Made by a program: the position numbers and the translations under genes
NCBI GenBank assembly: GCA_016180575.1
Contig: JACPAY010000007.1
Location: 77,642-126,043 of the forward strand
Direction: 5' to 3'
Origin: Candidatus Omnitrophota bacterium
GTDB lineage: Bacteria > Omnitrophota > Gorgyraeia > Aquiviventales > Aquiviventaceae
DNA: 48,402 nt
In this document: piece after piece, positions 1-19,343 of the stretch
How positions within the stretch are numbered: position 1 is the stretch's first letter
Layout of the letters: every line of letters begins with the position of its first letter
Notes under the pieces: generated by a model
Seen by the model: only the letters and a program-made list of their open reading frames with translations
The model's database searches: none
Told to the model about the DNA's origin: nothing

Positions 1-99
1 GGCACGCTGGCCTACGGCGCGCATCTGGGCGGCCGCCTGGTGTATGAGTTCGGCGTCGGAGGGGCCTTCGGCGCACCGGGGGTTGTGCTCCGCCGGTGA
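1..99 (+). CDS. C-terminal fragment of a membrane protein, possibly DUF2231-like (truncated by window start)
   Basis: Frame 1 open from base 1 to TGA at 97-99: GTLAYGAHLGGRLVYEFGVGGAFGAPGVVLRR; HLGGRLVYEFGVG resembles the C-terminus of DUF2231-type membrane proteins. Confidence 0.4.
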   Translation, partial: GTLAYGAHLGGRLVYEFGVGGAFGAPGVVLRR

Positions 100-111
100 A
101 CCGTGTACACT
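83..111 (+). promoter_or_regulatory. Candidate sigma70-type promoter TTGTGC-N17-TACACT
   Basis: -35 at 83-88, 17 bp spacer, -10 at 106-111, 9 nt before ATG at 121. Confidence 0.4.
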
Positions 112-120
112 TTTGAGGCC

Positions 121-1206
121 ATGGAAACCCGCCACGCCTACACGACCCACAACAGCGCCGTCGACGCGCAGATCGCGGCCCTCGTCAACTCCTTCGGCGA
201 CGACCTGGACCGCCGCCTGCTGGCCGAGATGATGGTCTCGGTCTACCGCCTGGGCGCCGACAGCTCCACCCATGGCGACCTCAAGCTCCTGAATTCCGCC
301 CTGAAGGAGCTGCGCTATGCCTTCAAGATCTTCCGCCCCTACCGCGCGATCCGCAAGGTCGCCATGTTCGGGTCCTCCCGGGTGTCCCGCCACCACCCGG
401 CCTACGCGATGGCGAGGGCGTTCGGCCGCCTGATGGCCCAGGCCGACTGGACGGTGATCACCGGCGCCGCCAGCGGCATCATGCGGGCGGGGCATGAAGG
501 CGCCGGGCGCGTGAAGAGCTTCGGGCTGAACATCCGGCTGCCGTTCGAGCAGGAGGCCAACCCGGTCATCGCCGGCGACACGAAGCTGATCAACTGCAAG
601 TACTTCTTCACCCGGAAGCTGCTGTTCATCAAGGAATCGCACGCCACCGCCCTCTTCCCGGGCGGGTTCGGGACGCTCGACGAGGGATTCGAGTCGCTCA
701 CCCTCGTCCAGACCGGGAAATCCGACCCGCGCCCCATCGTCTTCGTGGACCTGCCCCACGGCAGGTTCTGGGCGCCGCTCATCCGGTTCTTCGAAGAGCA
801 GCTCGTCGCGGGCGGCATGATCGCGCCCTCCGATCCCGCCGTCTACCGGGTCGTGCACTCCGCCGAGGAGGCCGCCGAGGCGATCCTGCGCTTCTACTCG
901 GTGTACCACTCGCTGCGGTACGTCGGCGACCGGCTGGTCCTGCGCCTGAACAGGCGCCTGCCGGATGAGGCGGTCGCGCGCCTTTCGCGCGAGTTCCGCG
1001 ACATCCTGCGCGCCGATGGGATCGAGCAGGGGCACGCCCTGCCGCAGGAAGCCGATGAGCCGCAGCTGTCGCACCTCGCCCGGCTCATCCTGCGGTTCAA
1101 CCGGAAGGACTTCGGCCGGCTCCTCCAGTTCATCCACCGGCTCAACGACCTCGGAACAACAAGCGAAGTCACAAGTCACACGTCACAAGTCACACGTCCG
1201 CGCTAG
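121..1206 (+). CDS. LOG family (lysine decarboxylase-like / TIGR00730-related) protein
   Basis: MFGSSRV..., GAASGIMRAGHEGAGR, PGGFGTLDEGFE motif typical of the LOG family; alternative GTG start at 103. Confidence 0.8.
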   Translation: METRHAYTTHNSAVDAQIAALVNSFGDDLDRRLLAEMMVSVYRLGADSSTHGDLKLLNSALKELRYAFKIFRPYRAIRKVAMFGSSRVSRHHPAYAMARAFGRLMAQADWTVITGAASGIMRAGHEGAGRVKSFGLNIRLPFEQEANPVIAGDTKLINCKYFFTRKLLFIKESHATALFPGGFGTLDEGFESLTLVQTGKSDPRPIVFVDLPHGRFWAPLIRFFEEQLVAGGMIAPSDPAVYRVVHSAEEAAEAILRFYSVYHSLRYVGDRLVLRLNRRLPDEAVARLSREFRDILRADGIEQGHALPQEADEPQLSHLARLILRFNRKDFGRLLQFIHRLNDLGTTSEVTSHTSQVTRPR

Positions 1207-1297
1207 AGCCCCGTAGAACAACTTCCCGCTTTCCAAGAACCGTTTAACCCTTTAGACTGGTACCCGTAACGTGTGACCTGTGACGTGTCACCTGTGA
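1167..1297. repeat. Heptamer inverted-repeat element, GTGACGT-type: left arm 1167-1198, right arm 1270-1297
   Basis: Left arm agtcaca agtcaca cgtcaca agtcaca cgtc; right arm cgtgtga cctgtga cgtgtca cctgtga; both in exact 7-bp register and mutually complementary. Confidence 0.8.
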
Positions 1298-1309
1298 CGC
1301 TCTTCGATC

Positions 1310-4300
1310 ATGCTCCACGCCGACTTCGTCCACCTGCACCTCCACACGAACTACTCCCTCCTGGATGGCGCCTGCCGCATCGGCCCGCTCGTGAAGCGCG
1401 CGGCCGAGCTGAAGTTCCCCGCGATGGCGATGACCGACCACGGCAACCTCTTCGGGGCGATCGAGTTCTACGAGACGTGCACGAAGGCGGGCATCAAGCC
1501 CATCATCGGCGTGGAGGGCTACATCGCCCCCAAGAGCCGCTTCGACAAGTCCGGGACCGGCATCCGGGACACCAACGCCCATCTGGTGCTGCTCGCCAAG
1601 GACGAGGCCGGCTACGCCAACCTCATGCGCCTGGTCACCGCCGGCTACCTCGAGGGGTTCTACTACAAGCCCCGGATCGACAAGGAGATCCTGGCGCAGC
1701 ACAAGGAGGGGCTGCTCCTCCTGACGAGCTGCCTCAAGGGCGTGCTGAACGTCCACCTCGCGCAGGACCAATGGGACCTCGCGCGCAGGGAGCTGGACGA
1801 CTTCATCCAGATCCTCGGCAAAGAGAACGTCTACGTCGAGCTGCAGCGCCACGGCCTGCCGCTCGAGGACAAGGTCCGCCCGCTGCTGCGCCGCCTGGCG
1901 CAGGACGCCGGGGTCCGGTGCGTCGCCACCAACGACGTCCACTACATCGAGCAATCACACGCCGAGGCGCACGACGCGCTCATGGCCATCCAGACGCAGA
2001 CGACGGTGGACGACCCGCACCGCCTGCGCTATGAGCAGCCGGCGTTCTTCCTGAAGTCCGCCGAGGAGATGAAAGCGCTCTTCAGCGAGGAGCCGGACGC
2101 CCTGGCGGCGACGCTGGAGATCGCGGAGCGGTGCAACCTGGAGCTGGAGTTCGGGAAGATCCACCTGCCGCACTACGAGCCGCCGGCGGGGAAGAGCCAG
2201 CACGCGTACCTGGAGGAGCTCTGCGCCAACGGCCTCAGGGGCCGCTACGGCGAGGCCACGCCGGCGCTCGCGGAGCGGCTCGAGCATGAGCTGGCGGTCA
2301 TCCAGCAGGCGGGCTACACCAGCTACTTCCTCATCGTCTGGGACTTCGTGCGGTTCGCCAAGGAGCGGGGGATCCCGGTGGGGCCCGGCCGGGGCTCCGC
2401 GGCGGGGAGCCTGGCGAGCTACTGCCTCGGGATCACCGACATCGACCCGCTGAAGTACGACCTCCTCTTCGAGCGGTTCCTGAACCCCCAGCGCGTCACG
2501 CAGCCCGACATCGACATCGACTTCTGCTACGAGCGCCGCAACGAGGTCATCGATTACGTCGTCCAGAAATACGGGAAGACCAACGTCGCCCAGATCATCA
2601 CCTTCGGGACGATGCAGGCGAAGGCGGTCGTGCGCGACGTCGCGCGCGTCATGAAGCTCTCCTACGCCGAGGCGGACCGGCTGGCCAAGCTGATCCCGAA
2701 CGAGCTGGACATCACCCTCTCGCGCGCCCTCGCCGAGGTGCCGGAGCTGGTCCACGCCTACCGCACGAGCGAGCAGGTGCAGCAGCTCATGGACACGGCG
2801 CTGGTCCTCGAAGGCCTCACGCGCCACGCCTCCACCCATGCGGCGGGGATCACCATCGCCGACAAGCCGCTCACCGAGTACGCGCCGCTCTTCAAGAGCC
2901 ACGACGGCCAGATCACGACCGGCTTCGACATGACGGCGCTGGAGCACATCGGGCTGCTGAAGATCGACATGCTCGGGCTGCGCACCCTCACGGTCATCGA
3001 CGAGGCGGTCAAGCTCATCGAGCGGCGGCACGGGACGCTCATCAACATCGACGCGCTGCCCCTCGATGACCCGGAGACCTTCCAGCTCCTGGCGCGCGCC
3101 GAGACGATGGGCGTGTTCCAGCTGGAAAGCTCCGGGATGCGGGACCTCCTCAAGAAGATCAAGCCCACCCAGTTCGAGGACATCATCTCGGTCATCGCGC
3201 TCTTCCGGCCGGGCCCCATCGGCTCCGGGATGCTCGATGAGTTCATGAAGCGCAAGCACGGCGAGATCGCGATCCGCTACGAGCACCCGCGCCTCGAACC
3301 AATCCTCAAGTCGACGTACGCCGTCATCGTGTTTCAGGAACAGGTCATGCGCATCGCGAGCGACCTCGCCGGCTTCTCGCTCGCCCAGGCCGACCTGCTG
3401 CGCCGCGCGATGGGGAAGAAGATCCCCGAGGTCATGGAGGCGCAGCGCAAGGCGTTCGTCGACGGGTGCAGGAAGAACGGCATCACCGAGCGCACCGCGA
3501 GCCGCATCTTCGACCTGATGGAGCACTTCGCGGGGTACGGCTTCAACAAGAGCCACAGCGCCGCCTACGCGCTCATCTCATACCGCACCGCGTACCTCAA
3601 GGCGCGCTATCCGGCCGAGTTCATGACCGCACTGCTCACGAGCGAGATGGGCAACACCGACAAGCTCGTCGTCTACCTGGACGAGGCCAAGCGCACGGGC
3701 CTGGCGGTGCTCCCGCCGGACGTGAACGAGAGCCAGGCGTTCTTCACGGTGGCGGACGCGCGCACGATCCGCTGCGGCCTGGGGGTCATCAAGAACGTGG
3801 GGTTGGCCGCCATCGACTCGCTCATCCAGGCGCGGGCGGCCCGCCTGTCTGCCGTCCCGTCCGGGACGGGACAGGCAGGCGGGCGGTTCCGGACGGTGCA
3901 GGAGCTCTGCCGCGACGTGGACCTGCGGCTCATGAACCGCAAGGTGTGCGAGAGCCTCATCAAGTCGGGCGCCTGCGACAGCATGGGGCTCTCGCGCGCG
4001 GCGCTCCTGGCGAGCCTCGACCAGGCGATGGAAGAGGCCACGAGCCTGCAGAAGGACCGGGTGCGCGGCCAGCTCACCTTCTTCGACTCGCTCGCCGAGA
4101 GCCCGCCCGTCACGCCGGCGGGCGGCGCCCCGGCCCATGGAAGCCTGCCAGCGGGGGTGAGCCGGCTGCGGGACTGGCCGGAGAGCCAGAAGCTCGCGTT
4201 TGAGAAGACGCTGCTCGGCTTCTACGTGTCCGGGCATCCGCTGGCCCGCTATGAGCGCACGTTGAAGCTGTTCGCCACCGCCACCTCCCGGCAGCTCCTC

Positions 4301-4870
4301 CAGCTGGAGGAGGGGGGCATGGCCACGGTCGGCGGCATGCTGACCAAGATCAAGCACACGACCACCAAGAAAACCAACGAGCAGATGGCGGTCTGCCTGC
4401 TGGAAGATCTGCAGGGCGATGTGGAGGTGCTGGTGTTCCCCAACAGCTTCGCGCAGCTGGCGCCGCAGCTGAAGCCCAACGCCATCGTGTTCGTGGAGGG
4501 CCGGGTGGCCATCCGGGAGGACCGGCCGCGGCTCATCGCCCAGCAGATCATCCCCATCGAGCAGGGCGGCAGCAAGCTCGCCCAGGGGATGGAGCTCATC
4601 CTGCGCCAGTACGAGCAGAAGGAGATGCTCGAGCAGCTGAAGGGGGTGCTCGCCCGCTTTCCGGGAACGGTGCCGATCACGCTCCGCCTCGAGGTCCCCA
4701 ACCAGGCCGCGGTGCGCCTGCGCCTGGCGGAGCAGTTCAAAGTGGAGCCGCGACAAGAGCTTCTCGACGCGCTCGACGAGCTGCTGGGCCAGGAGGCGGT
4801 GCTCATCAAGCGGCAGCCCCCCTCGATGGGGGTGCGCGGCGGCCGGGGGGCAGCCGTTTCCGCGGCTTGA
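1310..4870 (+). CDS. dnaE: DNA polymerase III subunit alpha
   Basis: 1186 aa; PHP N-terminus (FVHLHLHTNYSLLDGA), GPGRGSAAGSLASYCLGITDIDPL, PDIDIDFCYERR, OB-fold C-terminus. Confidence 0.97.
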   Translation: MLHADFVHLHLHTNYSLLDGACRIGPLVKRAAELKFPAMAMTDHGNLFGAIEFYETCTKAGIKPIIGVEGYIAPKSRFDKSGTGIRDTNAHLVLLAKDEAGYANLMRLVTAGYLEGFYYKPRIDKEILAQHKEGLLLLTSCLKGVLNVHLAQDQWDLARRELDDFIQILGKENVYVELQRHGLPLEDKVRPLLRRLAQDAGVRCVATNDVHYIEQSHAEAHDALMAIQTQTTVDDPHRLRYEQPAFFLKSAEEMKALFSEEPDALAATLEIAERCNLELEFGKIHLPHYEPPAGKSQHAYLEELCANGLRGRYGEATPALAERLEHELAVIQQAGYTSYFLIVWDFVRFAKERGIPVGPGRGSAAGSLASYCLGITDIDPLKYDLLFERFLNPQRVTQPDIDIDFCYERRNEVIDYVVQKYGKTNVAQIITFGTMQAKAVVRDVARVMKLSYAEADRLAKLIPNELDITLSRALAEVPELVHAYRTSEQVQQLMDTALVLEGLTRHASTHAAGITIADKPLTEYAPLFKSHDGQITTGFDMTALEHIGLLKIDMLGLRTLTVIDEAVKLIERRHGTLINIDALPLDDPETFQLLARAETMGVFQLESSGMRDLLKKIKPTQFEDIISVIALFRPGPIGSGMLDEFMKRKHGEIAIRYEHPRLEPILKSTYAVIVFQEQVMRIASDLAGFSLAQADLLRRAMGKKIPEVMEAQRKAFVDGCRKNGITERTASRIFDLMEHFAGYGFNKSHSAAYALISYRTAYLKARYPAEFMTALLTSEMGNTDKLVVYLDEAKRTGLAVLPPDVNESQAFFTVADARTIRCGLGVIKNVGLAAIDSLIQARAARLSAVPSGTGQAGGRFRTVQELCRDVDLRLMNRKVCESLIKSGACDSMGLSRAALLASLDQAMEEATSLQKDRVRGQLTFFDSLAESPPVTPAGGAPAHGSLPAGVSRLRDWPESQKLAFEKTLLGFYVSGHPLARYERTLKLFATATSRQLLQLEEGGMATVGGMLTKIKHTTTKKTNEQMAVCLLEDLQGDVEVLVFPNSFAQLAPQLKPNAIVFVEGRVAIREDRPRLIAQQIIPIEQGGSKLAQGMELILRQYEQKEMLEQLKGVLARFPGTVPITLRLEVPNQAAVRLRLAEQFKVEPRQELLDALDELLGQEAVLIKRQPPSMGVRGGRGAAVSAA
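3841..3882. repeat. Palindromic element inside dnaE (in frame)
   Basis: ccgcctgtctgccgtcccgtccgggacgggacaggcaggcgg, imperfect palindrome; encodes an extra RLSAVPSGTGQA. Confidence 0.75.
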
Positions 4871-4895
4871 CAAACTCCGGGAAGCGTGTTAAGGT
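4867..4895 (+). promoter_or_regulatory. Candidate sigma70-type promoter TTGACA-N17-TAAGGT for the HU gene
   Basis: TTGACA 4867-4872, TAAGGT 4890-4895, 17 bp spacing; overlaps the dnaE stop codon. Confidence 0.65.
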
Positions 4896-4905
4896 AAGCC
4901 TTCCT

Positions 4906-5184
4906 ATGGCGCTGACTAAGAAGGACTTAGTGTTGGCGGTGGCGAAGGACACCGGGATCACCCAGGTGGACGTCAAGCGGGTGGTCCAGCGGACCCTGGA
5001 CCATCTCGTGGAGAGCCTGAAGGAAGGGAAGACCATCGAGTTGCGCAACTTCGGCGTCTTCAAGGTGCGGCAGCGCGCGCCCCGACGCGGCCGCAACCCG
5101 AAAACGGGCCAGGAAGTCCCCGTGCCGCCCAAGCGGGTCGTGGTCTTCAAGCCTGGCCTGCTCATGCGCCAGGACATCAAGTAA
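4906..5184 (+). CDS. HU/IHF family DNA-binding protein
   Basis: MALTKKDLVLAVAKDTGITQ...ELRNFGVFKVRQRAPRRGRNPKTGQEV. Confidence 0.93.
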   Translation: MALTKKDLVLAVAKDTGITQVDVKRVVQRTLDHLVESLKEGKTIELRNFGVFKVRQRAPRRGRNPKTGQEVPVPPKRVVVFKPGLLMRQDIK

Positions 5185-5225
5185 CGCTCCACACGAGTAG
5201 CTCCATCACCTTCCTGAAGTAGTTC

Positions 5226-6548
5226 ATGGGATTCCAGGCCGTCCGGGGCACAACCGATCTCCTGCCCGACGAGGTGGCGCGCTGGTCCGCGGTGGAGCAC
5301 ACCGCCAGGCGCCTGTCCCGCCTGTACGGCTACCGAGAGATCCGCACCCCCATCATCGAGGAGGCCGGCCTCTTCCTGCGCTCGGTCGGCGAGACCACCG
5401 ACATCATCCAGAAAGAGATGTTCCGCTTCGAGGACCGGGGCGGGCACGACCTCGTCCTGCGGCCCGAGGCGACCGCCTCCGTCGTCCGCGCCTACCTGGA
5501 GCACCACCTCCACAAGACCGAGGGGTTCGCGAAGCTGTTCTATCTTGGCCCCATGTTCCGGGCCGAGCGGCCGCAGGCCGGCCGGTTCCGGCAGTTCCAT
5601 CAGTTCGGGGTGGAGGCGATCGGCTCCGGCAGCGCCTGGGTGGACGTCGAGGCGATCCTGCTCTGCGCACAGATCCTGCGCGCCTGCGGCCTGCCTGCCG
5701 CGCTACCGTCGCAACCGACTGGCGCGGCGCAGGCAGGCGTCGCCGGCGCGACCGTCTGGCTCGCCAGCATGGGATGCCGCGCGGACCAGAAGCGCTCGGC
5801 CGAGGCGCTGCGCAAGCGGTTGAGCCCGCACCGCGCCAAGCTGTGCAAGGAGTGCCAGGCGCGGTTTGACAAGAACGTCTTCCGCGTCCTCGACTGCAAG
5901 AACCCCTCCTGCCGCGCGATCGCCTGGGAAACACCCGGCTCGCCCTTCCTGCTCTGCGACGCCTGCGCCGCGCACTTCGACGAGGTGCGCCGGGGTGTGC
6001 GCGAGGCCGGCGTGGCGTTCGACGACACCAAGGTCTTCGCGCGGGGGCTGGACTACTACACCCGCACCGTCTTCGAGGTCCGCGTCCAGGGCCTCGGCGC
6101 CCAGGACGCGGTCGCGGCGGGCGGGCGGTACGACCACCTCGTCGAGGAGCTGGGGGGGCCTCCGCTCGGCGCGGTGGGATTTGCCGCCGGCATCGAGCGG
6201 CTCCTGATGGCGCTCAAGCAGGGCGCCGCCGAGGCCCCGAGCCCCGCGCGGCGCGGCGTGTACCTTGCGGTCGCGCAGGCGGCGCTGCTGGGCGACGGCT
6301 TCCGCCTCGTGCACCGCCTGCGCGAGCGGGGGGTGGCGGCGCTCATGGACTACGACGGCAAGAGCCTCAAGGCGCAGCTGCGGGAGGCGGACAAGCTCGG
6401 CTGCCGGCTCGTTGCGATCCTCGGCGAAGCGGAGCGGACGCAGGGCGCGATGACGCTCAAGGACCTGGAGCAGGGCAGCCAGCAGACCGTCGCGCTCGAC
6501 GCCTTTGTGGAGGAAGCCGCGAAACAGGCCAAGGCTACATGCCATTGA
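5226..6548 (+). CDS. hisS: Histidyl-tRNA synthetase
   Basis: RGTTDLLPDE, class II motifs, ARGLDYYTRTVFEV. Confidence 0.96.
   Translation: MGFQAVRGTTDLLPDEVARWSAVEHTARRLSRLYGYREIRTPIIEEAGLFLRSVGETTDIIQKEMFRFEDRGGHDLVLRPEATASVVRAYLEHHLHKTEGFAKLFYLGPMFRAERPQAGRFRQFHQFGVEAIGSGSAWVDVEAILLCAQILRACGLPAALPSQPTGAAQAGVAGATVWLASMGCRADQKRSAEALRKRLSPHRAKLCKECQARFDKNVFRVLDCKNPSCRAIAWETPGSPFLLCDACAAHFDEVRRGVREAGVAFDDTKVFARGLDYYTRTVFEVRVQGLGAQDAVAAGGRYDHLVEELGGPPLGAVGFAAGIERLLMALKQGAAEAPSPARRGVYLAVAQAALLGDGFRLVHRLRERGVAALMDYDGKSLKAQLREADKLGCRLVAILGEAERTQGAMTLKDLEQGSQQTVALDAFVEEAAKQAKATCH
5689..5738. repeat. Palindromic element inside hisS (in frame)
   Basis: gcctgcctgccgcgc...gcgcggcgcaggcaggc inverted repeat; encodes an extra PAALPSQPTGAAQAG segment. 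Confidence 0.7.
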
Positions 6549-6582
6549 ACACGATTGGCTGCTCCGCCGAACACCTACGTGT

Positions 6583-6681
6583 GGCCGCGGGTGACGCGGA
6601 GCCGGGGACCCCGCCGCCTGCCCGCAGGCCGACGAGGCCGAGGACAGCCGGCGGGGTGGCGGCGCGGCAGGACCCGCGGCC
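6583..6681. repeat. About 100-bp palindromic element, copy 1 (hisS-aspS spacer)
   Basis: Terminal inverted repeat GGCCGCGGGT...ACCCGCGGCC; near-identical to 8661-8764 except the apex. Confidence 0.88.
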
Positions 6682-6701
6682 TTTGGATTTTGGATTCCGT
6701 C

Positions 6702-8108
6702 ATGATGCGCACGCACGGCTGCGGCGAGCTGCGGGAGGCCGACATCGGGCGGGCGGTCACGCTCTGCGGCTGGCTCCACCGGCGGCGAGACCACGGCGGC
6801 GTGAGCTTCCTCGACCTGCGCGACCGCTCGGGCCTGGCCCAGGTCGTCTTCAACGCGAAGACTCAGCCCGCGCTCCACCAGCAGGCCAAGGGGTTCGGCC
6901 CCGAGTACGTCCTGCGCATCGAGGGCGCCGTGCGCGCCCGCCCGAAGGGGTCGGAGAACCCCAAGCTCCCCTCCGGCATGGTCGAGGTCGAGGCGACCGC
7001 GGTCACCGTGCTGAACCCCGCCGTGGCGCCGCCGTTTGAAATCGACGATCAGGGGGACCTCTCGGAGGACGTGCGCATGCAGTGGCGCTACCTCGACCTC
7101 CGGCGGCCCGCGAGCCAGCAGAAGCTCATCCTGCGCCACCGCGTCATCCACCGCATCCGAGACGTCCTGGACCGGCTGCAGTTCGTCGAGGTGGAAACGC
7201 CCATCCTCACGAAGTCCACGCCGGAGGGCGCGCGCGACTACCTCGTGCCCTCGCGCCTCAACCAGGGGCGGTTCTTCGCGCTGCCCCAATCGCCGCAGCT
7301 CTTCAAGCAGCTCCTCATGGTGGCGGGCCTGGAGCGCTACTTCCAGATCGCCCGCTGCTTCCGCGACGAAGACCTGCGGGCCGACCGCCAGCCGGAGTTC
7401 ACCCAGCTGGACCTGGAGATGTCCTTCATCGAGGAGGAGGACGTCTTCGCCGTCATCGAGGAAATACTCGGCGAGGTGTTCCAGGAGGCGCTCGGCGTGG
7501 CGCTGCCGCGGCCGTTCCCCCGCCTGACCCACCGGCAGGCGCTGGCGGCCCATCAGACCGAGAAGCCCGACCTGCACACCGAGCGTCTGCCGTGGGCCTT
7601 CTGCTGGGTGACCGAGTTCCCGCTCTTCCAGTGGGATGACCAGGGCAAGCGCTGGGAGGCCGCGCATCACCCGTTCACCTCCCCGCACCCCGAGGACCTT
7701 TCGCGGCTCGCCGGCGAGCCGGGCACGGTGCGCGCGCGGGCCTACGATCTCGTCCTCAACGGCGTCGAGCTCGGCTCAGGGAGCATCCGGATCCATGACG
7801 CGGCGCTGCAGCGCCGCGTGTTCGCGGTCCTGGGCCTTGAGGAGGCGATCGTGCAGGAACGGTTCGGGTTCCTCCTGCAGGCGTTCACGTACGGCGCCCC
7901 GCCGCATGGGGGGTTCGCCCTGGGCCTCGACCGGCTCGTGGCGCTCATGACGCGCACCCCCTCCATCCGAGATGTCATTGCGTTTCCGAAAACCCAAAAA
8001 GCCGTGGACCCGGTCACCGAGGCGCCATCGTCCGTCACCGAGACGCAGTTGAAGGAATTGGGGATCGCCGTGCTCACCGCAAAAGCCAAAGGAGGTCGTG
8101 ATGCCTAG
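6702..8108 (+). CDS. aspS: Aspartyl-tRNA synthetase, bacterial type, GAD domain apparently absent
   Basis: MRTHGCGELREADIGRAVTLCGWLHRRRDHGGVSF, HHPFTSPHPEDL, GSIRIHD, GYG-like APPHGGFALGLDRL, RDVIAFPKTQ. Confidence 0.95.
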   Translation: MMRTHGCGELREADIGRAVTLCGWLHRRRDHGGVSFLDLRDRSGLAQVVFNAKTQPALHQQAKGFGPEYVLRIEGAVRARPKGSENPKLPSGMVEVEATAVTVLNPAVAPPFEIDDQGDLSEDVRMQWRYLDLRRPASQQKLILRHRVIHRIRDVLDRLQFVEVETPILTKSTPEGARDYLVPSRLNQGRFFALPQSPQLFKQLLMVAGLERYFQIARCFRDEDLRADRQPEFTQLDLEMSFIEEEDVFAVIEEILGEVFQEALGVALPRPFPRLTHRQALAAHQTEKPDLHTERLPWAFCWVTEFPLFQWDDQGKRWEAAHHPFTSPHPEDLSRLAGEPGTVRARAYDLVLNGVELGSGSIRIHDAALQRRVFAVLGLEEAIVQERFGFLLQAFTYGAPPHGGFALGLDRLVALMTRTPSIRDVIAFPKTQKAVDPVTEAPSSVTETQLKELGIAVLTAKAKGGRDA

Positions 8109-8649
8109 AGCGAGTTGGACCGTGCTCGGCGCAGGATGCGCGCTGCTCCTCGCCGGGTGCCGCGCCGCTACCAAGGTGGTGGACGTCCCGCGCGTGGATC
8201 TGGAGCTGGCGGGCGGCAACCGCGGCTATCTCATCGGAAGCCCCCCTGAGGCGGGCGAGCTGAAGACGACGCGCCAGATGATGGAGGCCACCGTCGAGGT
8301 GCCGAGCTTCTATAAGCCCAAGCGGCTCGGCGCGCCGGTCGGCGGCGGCGTCCCGGTCGCGCCGGAGGGCCTGATGCCATCCGAGCCGGAGACGGCCGGC
8401 GAGCCACAGGCCCCTCCGCAGCGGTACGACAGCTACGTCGTCCAGAAGGGCGACAGCCTCTGGTCCATCGCGGCCAAGCCGGAGGTCTATGGCAAGGCGA
8501 CCTACTGGCGGCGGCTCTTTGACGCCAACCGCGACCTGCTCAAGAGCCCGGACCACCTGAAGGCCGGCATGACGCTCAAGATCCCGCGCGGCGGCGAGGG
8601 CGCCGGCGAGACGATGTACGATGACGAGGGCATCAGCTATAAAAAGTGA
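8101..8649 (+). CDS. LysM domain lipoprotein
   Basis: Lipobox LLAGC; YVVQKGDSLWSIAAKPEVYGKATYWRRLFDANRDLLKSPDHLKAGMTLKIP LysM module. Confidence 0.85.
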   Translation: MPRASWTVLGAGCALLLAGCRAATKVVDVPRVDLELAGGNRGYLIGSPPEAGELKTTRQMMEATVEVPSFYKPKRLGAPVGGGVPVAPEGLMPSEPETAGEPQAPPQRYDSYVVQKGDSLWSIAAKPEVYGKATYWRRLFDANRDLLKSPDHLKAGMTLKIPRGGEGAGETMYDDEGISYKK

Positions 8650-8660
8650 GCGCGGGGAGG

Positions 8661-8764
8661 GGCCGCGGGTGACGCGGAGCCGGGGCCCCCGCCGCCTGCC
8701 CGCAGTCCCGCCGATGGCGGGACGAGGACAGCCGGCGGGGTGGCGGCGCGGCAGGACCGTGGTC
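8661..8764. repeat. About 100-bp palindromic element, copy 2 (5' end of phoH)
   Basis: Same as 6583-6681 except apex gtcccgccgatggcgggac replaces ggccgacgaggcc (+6 bp) and a diverged 3' terminus. Confidence 0.88.
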
Positions 8765-9613
8765 TCCCGCGGCGATGAGATCAAGGTCAGCGGCGAGGAG
8801 GCGGCCGTGGGCCAGGCGATGCGGCTCTTCGATGACCTCCTGATCGTCATCCGCTCAGGCGCGCCCCTGCGCAAGGACGACGTCGACTACGCCCTGCGCG
8901 CGCTGCGGGATCCCCGCCTGATCCAGCTGCGCCAGGTCTACGAGGAGCGGATCGAGGTGCCCTCCAAGCGGCGGTTCGTCATCCCGCGCACGCCGGGGCA
9001 GAAGGCCTACGTGGACGCGATGCGCTCGCATGACATCGTCTTCGCCATCGGGCCTGCGGGGACAGGCAAGAGCTTCCTTGCGATGGCCATGGCGGTCGAG
9101 AATCTCACAAAGGGCGAGGTCTCGCGGATCATCCTCACGCGGCCCGCGGTGGAAGCGGGTGAGCGGCTCGGCTACCTGCCGGGCGCGCTGGAGGAGAAGG
9201 TCCACCCCTACCTGCGGCCGCTCTACGACGCGCTCTACGAGATGATGGAGATCGACATGGTCCAGCGCTACCTCGACCGCGGCATCATCGAGGTGGCCCC
9301 GCTCGCGTTCATGCGCGGCCGCACGCTCAACGACGCCTTCATCGTCCTGGATGAGGCGCAGAACACGACGAGCGAGCAGATGAAGATGTTCCTCACCCGC
9401 CTCGGGTTCGATTCCAAGGCGGTCATCACCGGGGACATCACCCAGATCGACCTGCCGGCGGAGAAGCCCTCCGGGCTCATCCAGGTGCAGAAGCTGCTCG
9501 CATCGGTCCCGGGCATCAAGTTCGCCCTCTTCAGCGGCCAGGACGTCGTGCGGCACGAGCTGGTCCAGGCGATCATCCGCGCGTACGAGCAGGGCAACCA
9601 TCAGCCGGGCTGA
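8669..9613 (+). CDS. phoH: PhoH family ATPase with N-terminus encoded by a palindromic element
   Basis: [58 protein letters not shown] 8669 has GGAGG at 8656-8660. Confidence 0.9.
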
Positions 9614-10134
9614 TGGGGATCATGACGGTGCAGATCACCAACGCCCAGCGCGAGGCCCCGGTCAGCACCGCCCGCATGACGCGCCTGGCGCGCCGCGCGG
9701 TCCGGCGGCTGGGCATGCGCGAGCCGGGACGCCTCGCCATCACGTTCATCGGGCAACACCGCCTGCGCGCCCTCAACCGCCGCTTCCTGCGCCGGGACCT
9801 GCCCACGGACGTGCTGAGCTTTCGGTATGACGATGAGCCCATCGTCGGCGACATCCTGATCGCCCCCGCCCAGGCGCGCGCCTACGCCAGGCGCCACGGG
9901 ATTCCGTACGCGGAGGAGCTGGCCCGCTATCTTGTCCACGGCCTGCTCCACTGGCTCGGCCATCTCGACTCGACGCCGCAGCAACGGCGGAACATGCGAC
10001 AGCGGGAAGACGATCTCTTGGCCGCTTGCGGCGTCCTGACCTCTCGAGACAGGAGACAAGGGACGGGGGACAAGCGAACTCGAAAGAACCCCCTGTCTCC
10101 TGTCTCCCGTCTCCTGTCTCAAGAGTGCGACTAA
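9613..10134 (+). CDS. ybeY: Endoribonuclease YbeY (16S rRNA maturation)
   Basis: TDVLSFRYDDEPIVGDILIAP and HGLLHWLGHLD; C-terminus extended through the heptamer repeat. Confidence 0.85.
   Translation: MGIMTVQITNAQREAPVSTARMTRLARRAVRRLGMREPGRLAITFIGQHRLRALNRRFLRRDLPTDVLSFRYDDEPIVGDILIAPAQARAYARRHGIPYAEELARYLVHGLLHWLGHLDSTPQQRRNMRQREDDLLAACGVLTSRDRRQGTGDKRTRKNPLSPVSRLLSQECD
10046..10120. repeat. Heptamer inverted-repeat element, GAGACAG-type
   Basis: gagacag gagacaa gggacgg gggacaa / loop / cctgtct cctgtct cccgtct cctgtct c. Confidence 0.88.
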
Positions 10135-10868
10135 TGGGGCTCCATACGGCGGAGGCGATTGTGCTGCGGCGCTATCCCTTCCGGGAGACCAGCGTCACGC
10201 TGACGTGCCTGACGGACCGCTTCGGCAAGCTCAAGGGGCTCGTGAAGGGGCTGCGCGCGCAGCCCCCCCGCCATCGCAGCGCGATGGAGCCGATGACGGT
10301 CAACCGCATCGTCTTCTACGACACGCGCGCGAGCCAGCTCCACCTCATCAGCCAGTGCGAGCTGCTCGAGCCGCTCAGCGGGCTCCAGGGCGACCTCGAC
10401 GTGATGCGGCTGGCGGCGCTGTGCGTGGACCTGGTGGACACGGTCGTGCCGCTCGAGGAGCCCCAGCCGGCGCTCTACGCCCTGCTCAAGCAGACGCTGG
10501 CGCATCTGGCCCTCGGCGGGACGGACCGCGCCGCCCTGCGGCTCCATTTCATCATCCGGCTCCTGCGCCTGGCCGGGTTCCACCCCCAGCTCGATGAGTG
10601 CACCGGCTGCGGCCAGCGGGTCCATGCCGGCGCCCGCTGGAGCGCGCGGCAGGGCGGGATCCTGTGCCCGCGCTGCCTGCCGGAGGATCCGCACGCGGAC
10701 CATGCGCCGCCCGAGCTGCTGGAGGCGCTGGACGCGCTCGCGGACGCGGACACGCCGCCGGCGCTTGCGCCGGCGGCGATCCCGGCGCTCACCGAGCGGC
10801 TGGACGATTTCCTGCGCTGGCGCCTCGACCGCCCGCTCAAGACGCTGGCAGGAATGCCAGAACGCTAA
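10134..10868 (+). CDS. recO: DNA repair protein RecO
   Basis: TAEAIVLRRYPFRETSVTLTCLTDRFGKLKGLVKGLR; C..C zinc site CTGCGQRV...GILCPRC. Confidence 0.9.
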   Translation: MGLHTAEAIVLRRYPFRETSVTLTCLTDRFGKLKGLVKGLRAQPPRHRSAMEPMTVNRIVFYDTRASQLHLISQCELLEPLSGLQGDLDVMRLAALCVDLVDTVVPLEEPQPALYALLKQTLAHLALGGTDRAALRLHFIIRLLRLAGFHPQLDECTGCGQRVHAGARWSARQGGILCPRCLPEDPHADHAPPELLEALDALADADTPPALAPAAIPALTERLDDFLRWRLDRPLKTLAGMPER

Positions 10869-12124
10869 TGGTTCGGGTATGGTTCGTTGGGATCGCCGTG
10901 GTCGCCGTCCTTGCCGTGTTGATCGTGTTCGGCTTGTCGTCTCGTGTGAAGCCGACGGTCAAGCCCTTCGTCTCACCGCGCCAATTACTGCCCTACGTCT
11001 CTCACGCGCAGGCGCGGGAGGCCATTTGCGCCACCATCACCACACCCCCATTTGGGGAGATCTGCCGGTCGGAATTTGATCACGTGGCGAAAGATGACAC
11101 GGAACGCATCGACCGGCTGTTCCTGATGCTCACTGCGGCCAAAGCTGACAAGACCCTTTCGGACTATGAGCGGTGGCTGCTTGCTCAGTTGGTCGTGGCG
11201 ACATTGCCCGTCAGTGAGAGCGGTAACAGCCCCCAAGCGTTCCGTGCTCGTCGGCCTTCACTCTTAGCCGATATCGGCAACGTCTTCGGTACGCCTCTCT
11301 TTGCCCAGGAGATCAAAACGGGCATGAGTCGGGCAGAATATCACGACCACTTGCTGCGCGATTTGAAGGCCGTCAAGGAGCACTGCCCGCCAGCCGGCGA
11401 CGATGCGTGGGTCTTCACGGCCATGTGCTCCGAATACTCATGGGTGAATGGTCTGCGACAACCCCTCTACTCCAAAGCGTACGGCGAGCGGGGCGGTTGG
11501 TGCGTCGACACCGATGAGGGGGAATCGGCTGCGCGCAGACGGTATCATGTCCGGTCTGTGACCAACACAAAAATGAGAAGCGAGAACAATTTTTCAGATG
11601 CCGCCCCTGGCGTGTCCAATCACATCTTGTGCCACTTCTCCTGCGGTTCATTTGCATGCCCCGAGAGGGGAGACACGACGGCCGCCGACCGCGTGAGCCA
11701 GGACTACACCGAGCGCGGGTATCAAGGTCCCGATTTCCTTCAACAGCTTCTCACGGCGGCAAGCACGACGGCGAGAGCTGAGCATGAGACCCCCCGCATC
11801 GAAATGGGTTCCGGCGGTGCGGCTGACCGCCAACTAAGCGATTGTGAAGAAAAATTTGACCGTGCCAGAGATCGATGTTTTACCATTCCCCCGGTGGCCG
11901 GGGAACATACGTTCAACGCCTGCTCGCGACAGGCGAAGGCGGATTACCTGGCGTGTCTGGAACACGAGGACCCTGTCCAGCACGCCACCATCAAGTGCGA
12001 TGACGTCTATCACACCATCAGCGCCAAATGCATCCCGATTCCTAGTGAACGGTATGACACCTGCCTCAGCGATGCCAAAGCGCAACATCAGGCGTGTCTC
12101 CAGGCCTCAACACGAAGGCCATAA
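10868..12124 (+). CDS. Cysteine-rich hypothetical protein with N-terminal TM/signal anchor
   Basis: [23 protein letters not shown]; visibly lower GC than neighbours; two C-terminal Cx10C repeat modules. Confidence 0.7.
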
Positions 12125-12125
12125 G

Positions 12126-13010
12126 ATGCCTGGTTCTCGCACGTTCCAACACATCGTCCGCGCGCTCGACGCCTTCTGGGAGCAGGAGGGCTGCGTCATC
12201 GTCCAGCCCTACGACATCGAGATGGGCGCCGGGACGTTCCATCCGGCCACCTTCTTCGGGGCGCTGGGCCCGGCCCCGGTGCGCGCCGCCTACGTGCAGC
12301 CCTCGCGCCGGCCCACCGACGGCCGCTATGGCAAGAACCCGCTGCGGATGCAGCGCTACTACCAGTACCAGGTGCTCCTGAAGCCCTCACCGGAGGATGT
12401 CCAAAGCCGCTACCTCAAAAGCCTCCGGGCCGTGGGCCTGGCGCTCGATGACCACGACCTCCGGTTCGTCCAGGACGACTGGGAATCGCCCACCCTGGGC
12501 GCGTGGGGCCTGGGCTGGGAGGTGTGGCTGGACAGCCTCGAGGTGACCCAGTTCACCTACTTCCAGCAGGTGGGCGGCGTGGACCTGGACCCCATCTCCT
12601 GCGAGATCACCTACGGCCTTGAGCGCATCGCCATGTTCGTGCAGGGGGCCGCCGACGTCTACAAGCTCGCCTACGGACCGCGCACCACCTACGGCGACCT
12701 CCACCTCGCCAACGAGCGGGAAAGCTCCGCGTACAACTTCGAGCACGCGGACGTCGCGCTGCACCAGCAGCTCTTCGCCAGCTGCGAGCAGGACGCGACG
12801 CGGCTGCTGAACGCGAAGCTGCTCCTGCCGGCCTACGAGCAGCTCCTCAAGTGCAGCCACACCTTCAACCTGCTCGATGCGCGCGGGGCGGTCAGCCAGT
12901 CCGACCGCCCGCGGTTCATCCTCCGCATCCGGGGCATCGCCAAACGATGCGCGGAGCTGTATCTTGAGCGGCAAGCGCCCGAGACAAGAGACAGGGGACA
13001 GGGGACATGA
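12126..13010 (+). CDS. glyQ: Glycyl-tRNA synthetase alpha subunit
   Basis: [52 protein letters not shown]. Confidence 0.97.
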
Positions 13011-13050
13011 AACGGCGAACACCTGTCTCCCGTCTCCTGTCTCCTGTCTC
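12981..13050. repeat. Heptamer inverted-repeat element, GAGACAG-type, spanning the glyQ/glyS junction
   Basis: gagacaa gagacag gggacag gggacat / loop / cctgtct cccgtct cctgtct cctgtct c. Confidence 0.88.
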
Positions 13051-15168
13051 AAGAGCGACGGATCTGCTCCTCGAGATCGGGACCGAGGAGTTGCCGGCCG
13101 CCTACCTGCCGGGCCTGATCGAGCAGCTGGGCCGCGAGGCCGCAACACTCCTGCAGGCGCACCATCTGCCGTATGAGCGCGCGGAGAGCGCCGGCACCCC
13201 CCGGCGCCTCGTCCTCATCGTGCGCGGGCTCTCCGCGACGCAGCGCAAGCCGGCCGAAGAGGTCCGGGGCCCCTCGAAACAGGCCGCCTACGACAAGGAC
13301 GGCAAGCCGACCGCGGCGCTCCTCGGGTTCCTGCGCGCGCAAGGCGGCAGCCTCGCCCACACGAAGGTCGTCTCCTCCGAGCGGGGCGATTACGTCTATC
13401 TCGTGAAGGAGCCGAGGGCGACGCCCGCCTCGGCGGTCCTGCCGGAGCTCCTGCCGCAGCTCATCGGCCGGCTGCGAGCGCCGAAGACGATGCGCTGGGA
13501 CGCGTCCGGCGTGCGCTTCGCGCGGCCCATCCGGTGGCTGTTGGCGCTCTACGGGACGTCCGCCCTCCGGTGCTCGCTCGGGACGCTCCAAAGCGCCTCG
13601 GCGACGCGGGTCGGCGGGCCGCTGCGCCCCCGGGCCGTCCGGGTCCGGTCGCTCGAGGGGTACCTGCGGACGCTGAAGCAGGCTGGGGTCGCGCTCGACC
13701 AGGCGCAGCGCCGTGCCTGGATCGAGCAGGCGGTCGGGCGGATCGCCGGGCAGGCCCGCGGGGCCGCCGCCCCCGAGATGGTCAGCCACGGACTCCTGGA
13801 TGAGGTCACGCACCTCGTCGAGCGGCCGACACCGCTCGCGGGGCGGTTCGACCGCACCTACCTCTCGCTGCCGCGCGAAGTGCTCCTGGCGAGCATGGCG
13901 AAATACCAGCGGGTGTTCGCGGTCGAGGCCGGGGGAACCCTCCTGCCGCAGTTCATCGCGATCCTGGAAGGCCCGCCCCGCCGCCCGGCGGAGGTCCGCA
14001 AGGTGATGGAGCGCATCCTCAACGCGCGCCTGGCGGACAGCCTGCTCTTCTGGATCGAGGACCACCAGCGCCTCCCGCTCCAGCGGATGGCGGAAGCGCT
14101 CTCCGGCGTCACGTTCCATGAGCGGCTGGGCTCCATGGCCGAGAAGACGGTCCGGCTCCGGGCGCTGGCCGAGCCGCTCGCCGAGGCCTGGCAGCTCACC
14201 GAGGAGGAGCGCGCGCACCTGCGGCGGGCGTGCCAGCTGGCCAAAGCGGACCTCGTCAGCACGATGGTGAAGGAGTTCCCGACGCTCCAGGGGGTCATCG
14301 GGAAGCACTATGCCCGCGATTCCGAGGAGCCCGCGCCGGTGGCGGAGGCGATCGAGGAGCAGTACCTGCCGGCGGGGAACCAGCGCCCCCGGACGCTGCT
14401 CGGCGGCGCCCTGGCGCTCCTCGACAAGTACGACACGCTCAGCAGCTACTTCGGCCTCGGGATCATGCCGACCGGCGACCAGGACCCCTTCGGCCTCCGG
14501 CGGGCGGCGCAGGGGATCGTCGAGATCGCCTGGACCGTCCACCGGCCGCTCCCGCTCGGGGCGCTCTTCCGCACCCGGACCTCGATGGAGCCGTTCCGCA
14601 GCGTCCAGCCCCGGGCGGCCGCGACCGCCGGCAACCAGGTCCAACGGTATTTGCTGGACCGGCTGGACACGTTCGAGTGGCCAACGCCCGCGCCCGCGCC
14701 GGACACCATCGATGCGGTGCTCGCCGGGCCCTGCGATGACCTCGTGGACGTCATGGACCGCATCGTCACCCTCCAGGGGCTGCACAATCATCCGGCCCTG
14801 CGCAAGGCCGCCAAGGTTATCGAGCGCACGCGCAATATCCTGCGGGGCGCTGCGCTGCGGCAGCCCCAGGTCGACCCCGCCCGCCTGGCCGAAGCCCCGG
14901 AGCGGCAGCTCTGGGAGCTCTATCGCGCCCACGAGCCCCGCCTGGCCGGGCTCGCCCAGGACAAGGCGTACGCCGAGGCCACGACGCTGTTCGGCGAGGT
15001 GTTCTTCGAGCCGCTGCACCGGTTCTTCGACCAGGTGATGGTCAATGTCCCGGACGAAGCGCTCCAGCAGAACCGGCTCGCCTTGATGCAGGCGATTCAG
15101 GCGTTGTATACTGACCGCATCGCCGACCTCTCGAAACTCACGTTACTCCACCACGAGGAGCCAGCCGC

Positions 15169-15172
<4 letters not shown>
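13007..15172 (+). CDS. glyS: Glycyl-tRNA synthetase beta subunit
   Basis: [36 protein letters not shown]; start codon lies in the heptamer repeat. Confidence 0.96.
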
Positions 15173-17952
<2,780 letters not shown>

Positions 17953-17956
17953 TCCT

Positions 17957-18024
17957 GAGACATGGGACATGAGACAGGTGTGACGTTCACTTGTCCCCTG
18001 TCTCCCGTCCCCTGTCTCCTGTCT
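17957..18024. repeat. Heptamer inverted-repeat element, GAGACAG-type, ppdK-sigma factor spacer
   Basis: gagacat gggacat gagacag / gtgtgacgttca / cttgtcc cctgtct cccgtcc cctgtct cctgtct. Confidence 0.85.
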
Positions 18025-18029
18025 CCGGC

Positions 18030-19019
18030 ATGAGCGATCCCATCCGGTCCTACCTCCGGGACATCAAAGAGATCCCCCTGCTGACCGCCAGGCAGGAGAT
18101 CGAGCTCGCCACCAAGATCCGCCGGGGCGACACGAAGGCGAAGCGCCAGATGACGCTCTCCAACCTGCGCCTCGTCATCAACATCGCCAAGCGCTACGCG
18201 CACCTCGGCGTGCCGCTGCTCGACCTGATCGAGGAAGGGAACCTCGGCCTGATGAAGGCGGTCACCAAGTACAACCCGAAGAAGGGATTCCGGTTCTCGA
18301 CCTACGGCGCCTGGTGGATCCGCCAGTACATCACCCGGGCGATCGCCAACCAGGGAAAGACCGTCCGCATCCCGGTCTACATGACGGAGCTGCTCTCGAA
18401 GTTCAAGCGCATCACGGAGGAGCTCTCGCAGAAGCTCGCTCGCCGGCCCACCGCCTCGGAGCTGGCCCGGCGCATGCGCCTGCCGGTGGAGCGCATCGAG
18501 CGCTTGCAGGAGCTGGTCACCTCCTCGCAGGCCACGTCGCTTGAGACGCCGGTCGGGGAAGAGGGCGAGACGGAGATGATCGACCTGCTGCAGGACGAGA
18601 CGACCCCCTCGCCGCAGGAGGACATCGGCCGGTTCCTCCAGCACGAGCGCATCGGGGCGCTCCTCCAGCAGATGGGCGAGCGCGAGCGCCGGGTGCTCGT
18701 CCTCCGCTATGGCCTGGAGGACGGCATCAGCCGCACCCTCGGCGAGACGGCGAAGTTCTTCGACATCACGCGCGAGCGGGTGCGGCAGATCGAGGCGGTC
18801 GCCATGCGCAAGCTCCGCGCGCTCATCGCGGCGGAGGAGACCCCCGGGGCCCCCGCTGCAGCGGGCGTCCCCGCGTCCCCCCCGAAGCGCCCCGCACCCA
18901 GGACCCAGAAGCGGAAGCGCCGGACGCGCGCGGCCCGGCGCCACCGTGCGGCCCGAAGGCATGCCGCCGTAGCCCGCCCCCACACCAAACGGGTGGGTGT
19001 GGGGGCCCGCCGCCGCTGA
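18030..19019 (+). CDS. rpoD: RNA polymerase sigma factor, RpoD/SigA type
   Basis: DPIRSYLRDIKEIPLLTARQEIELA, FSTYGAWWIRQYITRAI, ERVRQIEAVAMRKLRAL; about 59-aa basic tail. Confidence 0.92.
   Translation: MSDPIRSYLRDIKEIPLLTARQEIELATKIRRGDTKAKRQMTLSNLRLVINIAKRYAHLGVPLLDLIEEGNLGLMKAVTKYNPKKGFRFSTYGAWWIRQYITRAIANQGKTVRIPVYMTELLSKFKRITEELSQKLARRPTASELARRMRLPVERIERLQELVTSSQATSLETPVGEEGETEMIDLLQDETTPSPQEDIGRFLQHERIGALLQQMGERERRVLVLRYGLEDGISRTLGETAKFFDITRERVRQIEAVAMRKLRALIAAEETPGAPAAAGVPASPPKRPAPRTQKRKRRTRAARRHRAARRHAAVARPHTKRVGVGARRR
18976..19006. repeat. Perfect 11-bp-stem hairpin at the 3' end of the sigma factor gene
   Basis: gcccccacacc-aaacgggtg-ggtgtgggggc; no following T-run. Confidence 0.7.
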
Positions 19020-19032
19020 CCCGGCCGAGCGT

Positions 19033-19106
19033 GCGCCTGTAGCTCAAATTGGAAGAGCGGGGGCGTCCTAAGCCCTGCGTTGCAGGTTCGACTCCTGCCA
19101 GGCGCA
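19033..19106 (+). tRNA. tRNA-Arg (anticodon CCT)
   Basis: Acceptor GCGCCTG/CAGGCGC + A; D arm GCTC/GAGC; anticodon arm GGGGC-GTCCTAA-GCCCT; T arm GCAGG-TTCGACT-CCTGC. Confidence 0.95.
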
Positions 19107-19180
19107 CTCTTCATTCGTCTGCAGTCCAACAAACCCGCTTAAAATCGCATAGGGGTTGTTACCCCTGCATGAAAAAATGC

Positions 19181-19209
19181 TTGACAAGGGTGGCGTAAGT
19201 TCCTATAGT
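19181..19209 (+). promoter_or_regulatory. Strong candidate promoter TTGACA-N17-TATAGT
   Basis: TTGACA 19181-19186, TATAGT 19204-19209, upstream of the outer-membrane protein gene. Confidence 0.75.
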
Positions 19210-19222
19210 AAGCGCAACTTCT

Positions 19223-19234
19223 GAAAGGAGGTGA
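19223..19234 (+). promoter_or_regulatory. STAB-SD-like element GAAAGGAGGTGA near the predicted 5' mRNA end
   Basis: Near-perfect anti-SD complement with no ATG/GTG/TTG at start-codon spacing; the separate gene RBS is AAGGAGG at 19331-19337. Confidence 0.5.
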
Positions 19235-19343
19235 CCTCATCAGGCGCAGCATCTTCCTGAGGGTCCTTCTTGAAGACATCACGAGCACACGAGGTCTGAT
19301 GCACCAGCTTGGGGAGTGGGGACGCACAACAAGGAGGGTGGGC

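What the first reader, a model, noticed from the sequence alone, without database searches (positions are those of the whole stretch)
3841..15324. Family of palindromic elements with a conserved stem and exchangeable apex, five loci in 12 kb, four inside housekeeping ORFs
Seen directly: (a) dnaE 3841-3882 ccgcctgtctgccgtcccg-tcc-gggacgggacaggcaggcgg; (b) hisS 5689-5738 gcctgcctgccgcgc...gcgcggcgcaggcaggc; (c) 6583-6681; (d) 8661-8764; (e) ppdK 15266-15324 ccctgtctgc...gcaggcaggc. The dnaE copy aligns with the core of copy (d): CCGCCTGyCyGCmGTCCCG...GGGACGrGGACAGsCrGGCGGG. Copies a, b and e share the outer stem CCTGYCTGC/GCAGGCAGG but carry different inner hairpins. All leave the host frame open. 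Compared with remembered DnaE and HisRS sequences, the inserts add about 12 aa (RLSAVPSGTGQA) and about 15 aa (PAALPSQPTGAAQAG) at otherwise conserved positions. Established parallel: Rickettsia palindromic elements, which insert in frame into genes. No transposase is present here, so a source acting in trans is inferred.
Basis: partly seen in the sequence, partly recalled or inferred. Interest (0 to 1): 0.86.

Follow-up and report, generated by a model that had tools for sequence, protein, structure and literature searches.

The report
In-frame mobile palindromes in Omnitrophota genes
Tiny DNA palindromes (30-57 bases, always a multiple of three) have jumped without breaking the reading frame into at least 30 genes of this uncultured bacterium, including those for DNA polymerases, a tRNA synthetase and a ribosomal protein, almost always in the one codon phase that encodes a harmless loop, much as known from Rickettsia but in an unrelated phylum and in a new form.

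Summary
Confirmed and extended. The genome (an Omnitrophota MAG) holds 34 copies of a short palindrome CCTGYCTG...CAGRCAGG. Every copy is 30-57 nt long and a multiple of 3; the reversed control pattern gives 0. Copies a (dnaE), b (hisS) and e (ppdK) belong to it. A same-genus genome has the exact empty site for these three and at least nine others, with no target-site duplication. Pfam-anchored frames put 28 of 31 coding copies in one codon phase (xLPAAP-n-GAAQAG), 3 in a second, 0 in the third; all 14 anchored copies in other species of the family use that same phase. The outer stem is fixed; the apex is diverged and hydrophilic in the used frame. The 36-nt dnaE copy has an identical twin in carB. 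Copies c and d are a different, ~92-98 nt intergenic family (about 40 copies), so the five loci are two families and three, not four, lie inside ORFs. It works like Rickettsia palindromic elements but differs in sequence, size and phylum. No mover is identified: the single RAYT-type gene is flanked by another palindrome and does not track the element; Ku is absent. New variant of a known kind.

The parts
3844..3879 (+). SHORT element a, 36 nt, in frame in dnaE (1310-4870), phase 2, encodes RLSAVPSGTGQAG; identical 36-nt twin in carB (G000 C14:3131-3166)
   Evidence: exact empty site GGCCCG^CGGGCGG in same-genus L096; 37 DnaE orthologs aligned; twin
5690..5737 (+). SHORT element b, 48 nt, in frame in hisS (5226-6548), phase 2, encodes GLPAALPSQPTGAAQAG
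   Evidence: exact empty site CTGCGG^CGTCGCC in L089/L096; ortholog sequences lack it; E. coli HisRS lacks it; insert modelled as coil with pLDDT < 50
15267..15323 (+). SHORT element e, 57 nt, in frame in the N-terminal extension of ppdK (15169-17952), phase 2
   Evidence: flanks contiguous in G001 (L254 GCGGGCCAGGCCAAGTCC); PPDK homology starts at aa 53
6583..6681 (.). LONG element c (about 92-nt subtype plus outer stem), intergenic hisS-aspS
   Evidence: about 40 genomic copies; absent at this site in G001 (row L014)
8661..8764 (.). LONG element d (about 98-nt subtype), between a LysM-protein gene and phoH; the phoH 5' end present in G001 is missing here
   Evidence: row L001

Best explanation
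The three coding loci are copies of a non-autonomous mobile palindrome. Its outer stem CCTGYCTG/CAGRCAGG is held constant, probably because an unidentified enzyme acting in trans recognises the hairpin (inferred). It inserts bluntly, without target-site duplication and with a preference for G^C steps (shown by empty sites). Selection on the host protein then removes insertions that shift the frame or encode a damaging peptide (inferred). What survives is a multiple of 3 long and read in the one phase that gives a Pro/Ala/Gly-rich loop, xLPAAP-n-GAAQAG (shown). Being a palindrome, it gives nearly the same peptide in either orientation. The apex is not needed for mobility and has diverged, but its codons stay hydrophilic and stop-free. 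The effect on host proteins is expected to be close to neutral (untested).
For: 34 copies, all lengths multiples of 3, control 0. At least 12 exact empty sites in the sister species, no TSD. Phase 28:3:0 in this genome and 14:0:0 in other species, Pfam-anchored. G^C steps fall about equally in the three phases (602 of 1944 in phase 2), so target preference does not explain the bias (P about 1.6e-16 for 38/41). The plain 33-mers are stop-free in at least five of six frames, yet all anchored ones are phase 2. Apex codons: 11% hydrophobic in the used frame vs mostly 20-39% in the other frames, 0 stops. Stem 2% substituted while apexes are diverged with some related pairs. None of 38 target codons has T at position 2. 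HisRS insert modelled as a disordered loop. Two copies are nested in LONG elements, so insertion is not restricted to genes.
Against: No mobilising enzyme found. Three copies are in phase 0. In a pseudouridine-synthase gene (L266:2004) the frame changes near the element, and gatA (L214) has a frameshift about 50 nt upstream of it; both may be assembly errors or real damage. For the copies near the aldo/keto-reductase and dxs 3' ends the frame assignment is less certain. Whether the proteins are made and active is untested. The HisRS model has moderate confidence (mean pLDDT 73.5).
Confidence: 0.85

Rival explanations
1. The genome's own RAYT/IS200-type Y1 transposase moves the SHORT palindrome, making it an ordinary REP.
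For: One Y1_Tnp gene in G000, C24:16879-17208; no target-site duplication and an imperfect hairpin fit HUH transposition (established knowledge).
Against: That gene is flanked on both sides by a different palindrome, AAAGTACCGGGTACTTTT. SHORT and Y1 do not track each other across 27 genomes; G019 and G024 have 5 copies each and no Y1 found, though these genomes are incomplete. Target specificity is weak. Only 1 of 27 copies shows a CGTC tag, none GTAG.
Confidence: 0.15
2. Short DNA hairpins are captured at double-strand breaks by end joining rather than by a transposase.
For: Blunt insertion, no TSD, weak target preference.
Against: Ku not found in any of 27 genomes; end positions are exact and the same stem is copied repeatedly; a G^C preference exists.
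Confidence: 0.1
3. Chance GC-rich palindromes or ancestral protein segments in a 69% GC genome.
For: High GC makes short palindromes common.
Against: Reversed-pattern control 0; exact empty sites in a sister species; an identical 36-nt copy in dnaE and carB.
Confidence: 0.01
4. The phase bias comes from a codon-phase-aware insertion process (for example RNA- or translation-coupled) rather than from selection.
For: The bias is extreme and holds even for stop-free 33-mers.
Against: Copies nested in intergenic LONG elements, and in phage contigs near gene ends, show insertion outside reading frames; the favoured peptide is the mildest of the three, as selection predicts.
Confidence: 0.05

Closest known systems
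Rickettsia palindromic elements (RPE) and Wolbachia protein-coding palindromes
   Same: Palindromic, non-autonomous, inserted in frame into unrelated conserved genes; mover unknown; R. conorii DnaE also carries one (PMC3733652, PMC10969869, PMC2229807).
   Different: RPEs are about 105-150 bp; here 30-57 nt with other sequence, a fixed outer stem with exchangeable apex, one dominant codon phase, and host phylum Omnitrophota.
REP / REPIN elements with RAYT transposases, GTAG or CGTC tagged (Di Nocera et al. 2013, PMC3733652)
   Same: 20-40 bp imperfect palindromes, many copies; intragenic copies reported in several species, many in replication and repair genes.
   Different: No GTAG or CGTC tag; nearly all copies intragenic rather than extragenic; not flanking the local RAYT gene.
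Bacterial MITEs (ERIC, NEMIS, RUP)
   Same: Small non-autonomous inverted repeats, some fused in frame to ORFs (PMC2229807).
   Different: MITEs are usually 70-300 bp with terminal inverted repeats and, in most listed families, target-site duplications; none here.

Membership tests
Rickettsia palindromic elements (RPE) | Palindrome inserted in frame into conserved protein genes, absent in orthologs | tested here: met
Rickettsia palindromic elements (RPE) | Size about 105-150 bp (PMC2229807, PMC10969869) | tested here: not met
   34 copies, 30-57 nt
Rickettsia palindromic elements (RPE) | Sequence similarity to a named RPE family | not tested
   RPE sequences were not at hand; one original paper was not held
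Rickettsia palindromic elements (RPE) | CGTC at one end, as reported for R. conorii RPEs (PMC3733652) | tested here: not met
   1 of 27 copies
REP (GTAG/CGTC superfamilies) | Terminal GTAG or CGTC tetranucleotide | tested here: not met
   0 and 1 of 27
REP (GTAG/CGTC superfamilies) | Cognate RAYT gene flanked by the element | tested here: not met
   the RAYT-like gene of G000 is flanked by another palindrome
MITE of a DDE transposon | Target-site duplication | tested here: not met
   exact empty sites without duplication, clearest in L204 15192
IS200/IS605-type (Y1) derivative | Fixed 4-5 nt target at one flank | tested here: not met
   only a G^C preference

The most novel reading that the evidence does not exclude
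The element is a replicator selected at two levels at once: as a DNA hairpin for mobility, and as a coding module whose palindrome has been shaped so that, in either orientation, its dominant phase encodes the same harmless hydrophilic linker. Coding genes, not intergenic space, would then be its normal habitat.
Probability: 0.35. Interest if true: 0.8.

Novelty: new variant of a known kind. Interest (0 to 1): 0.66.

Why it matters
Protein-coding palindromes have been best known from Rickettsiales, where their mover and their effect on proteins are unresolved. Here is an independent system in another phylum, with a sister genome supplying exact empty sites, many copies in core genes, and a quantitative signature (phase 42:3:0 over 45 copies, no frame-shifting lengths) of protein-level filtering. 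It makes the questions of how such elements move and how proteins tolerate them testable by comparison, and it warns that loop insertions in MAG proteins can be mobile DNA.

Tried and rejected
Apexes as captured genomic DNA: searched in the sampled parts of G000 and G001, no convincing source. Apex as freshly random filler: rejected, since some apexes are related and share a weak consensus. RAYT as the mover: flank and co-occurrence tests negative. Ku-dependent end joining: no Ku. Known structured RNA: Rfam finds only a tRNA in window 1-20000. Homology-free codon scoring misassigned several frames and was replaced by Pfam anchoring.

Full report
Observation. The window is C25:77642-126043 of a 1.31-Mb, 84.6% complete MAG; the window is 69% GC. 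Its nearest relatives by DnaE are Candidatus Omnitrophota. All five reported sequences exist, but they fall into two families. c and d are copies of a LONG element of about 92-98 nt with about 40 copies in this genome, here intergenic. a, b and e are SHORT elements with ends CCTGYCTG...CAGRCAGG.

Copy number. The SHORT pattern gives 35 hits per strand in the genome, 34 distinct elements, with 0 for the reversed control. Lengths are 30, 33, 36, 45, 48 (17 copies), 51, 54 and 57: all multiples of three, although 26-64 nt was allowed. Inner parts differ: the CGCGCC-N-GGCGCGG type (b and most others), a GTCCC type (dnaE and an identical 36-nt twin in carB), and a GTGCC type (polA, rpoN and two nested inside LONG copies). 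In the same taxonomic family, 14 of 26 other genomes matched the pattern. In a phylum sample 38 of 334 matched, though outside the family most hits are other palindromes that share only the CCTGCCTGC stem and are often not a multiple of 3.

Mobility. The same-genus genome G001 has precise empty sites for dnaE and hisS, for ppdK and for at least nine further copies. Junctions show no target-site duplication; the step G^C is preferred (28 of 38 G on the left, 29 of 38 C on the right). None of the more than 40 other HisRS sequences aligned carries an insert there. DnaE orthologs lack this insert, but L097 carries an independent palindromic insert at the same spot. At three other gene sites G001 carries an unrelated stretch where G000 has SHORT (L196:7898, L203:1636, L212:8165; 78, 60 and 75 nt), two of them visibly palindromic, so some positions seem permissive and reused.

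Coding phase. Host genes named by Pfam include DnaE, PolA, SSB, PriA, RecX, ScpA, HisRS, PPDK, NrdJ, NadE, Der, NuoC, L25, CarB, FtsQ, RpoN, SucC, TrpE and PabB. Of 31 coding copies with an anchored frame, 28 are in phase 2, 3 in phase 0 (TrpE-like, PabB-like and an RNA-methyltransferase) and none in phase 1. In other species of the family all 14 anchored copies are phase 2 (OEP, Lnt, HolA, ComM-like, L3, a starch/glycogen synthase, a radical-SAM protein, EB_dh, Rho, a class I tRNA synthetase, a proton-antiporter subunit, S1, ClpB, SucC). G^C steps are about equally common in all phases, and plain 33-mers are open in at least five of six frames, so neither target choice nor stop codons explains the bias. 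The favoured phase reads xLPAAP-n-GAAQAG; the others bring Cys and Arg. In the apex the used frame is 11% hydrophobic against mostly 20-39% in other frames, without stops. Selection on the protein is the simplest explanation; it is inferred, not shown.

Apex. In 48-mers the stem is 2% substituted but the 16-nt apex is highly diverged, with related pairs (13/16, 13/16, 11/16 identical) and a weak consensus. This fits old lineages kept mobile by their stems while the apex drifts.

Structure. AlphaFold places the HisRS insert (residues 156-170) as coil with pLDDT below 50 between a helix and a strand; a fold search recovers HisRS structures. Model confidence is moderate, so this is support, not proof, for a surface loop.

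Mover. Unknown. The single Y1 (RAYT-like) gene is flanked by its own GTACC palindrome and Y1 presence does not follow SHORT; Ku is absent. Six IMG/VR phage-like contigs carry the 33-mer, so phages could carry it between hosts; this was not tested.

Comparison with the known. Rickettsia palindromic elements (PMC10969869, PMC2229807) behave the same way: palindromic, in frame, many conserved genes, mover unknown. Intragenic REPs are reported in several bacteria, including one in R. conorii DnaE (PMC3733652). SHORT differs in size, sequence, lack of the CGTC or GTAG tag, and in its single dominant phase. It works like an RPE; membership is not shown. Two literature searches for Omnitrophota or candidate-phylum reports returned nothing on point, in an open-access library only.

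Noticed in passing
window 1168-1298, 10041-10125, 12982-13055, 17957-18026: Hairpins built of 7-nt repeats (GAGACAGGAGACAAGGGACGG...CTGTCTCCTGTCTC, and a GTCACA-type one) at gene junctions; most of the one at 10042 is absent in G001.
   Followed up: partly
window 8661-8764 and L009: LONG insertions coincide with loss of the 5' end of the next gene (phoH; another gene at L009) relative to G001.
   Followed up: partly
L266:8846-9538 (G000 C24): RAYT-type Y1 transposase gene flanked on both sides by an AT-richer palindrome AAAGTACCGGGTACTTTT: a likely separate REP/RAYT system.
   Followed up: partly
L290-L295 (IMG/VR contigs): Phage-like contigs (terminase, tape measure, neck proteins) hold the 33-nt SHORT palindrome; in L291 and L293 (and similarly L290) it sits at the same place just upstream of a likely start codon.
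   Followed up: partly
L006 and L207:11313: A 33-nt SHORT copy is nested at the same place (CTCCG^CGTCACC) in two LONG copies.
   Followed up: yes
G055 (other family, same class): 47 hits of a CCTGCCTGCCTG-type palindrome with lengths mostly not multiples of 3.
   Followed up: no
L214:7746-7814 and L266:2004: gatA and a pseudouridine-synthase gene change frame close to a SHORT copy; sequencing error or real damage not resolved.
   Followed up: no
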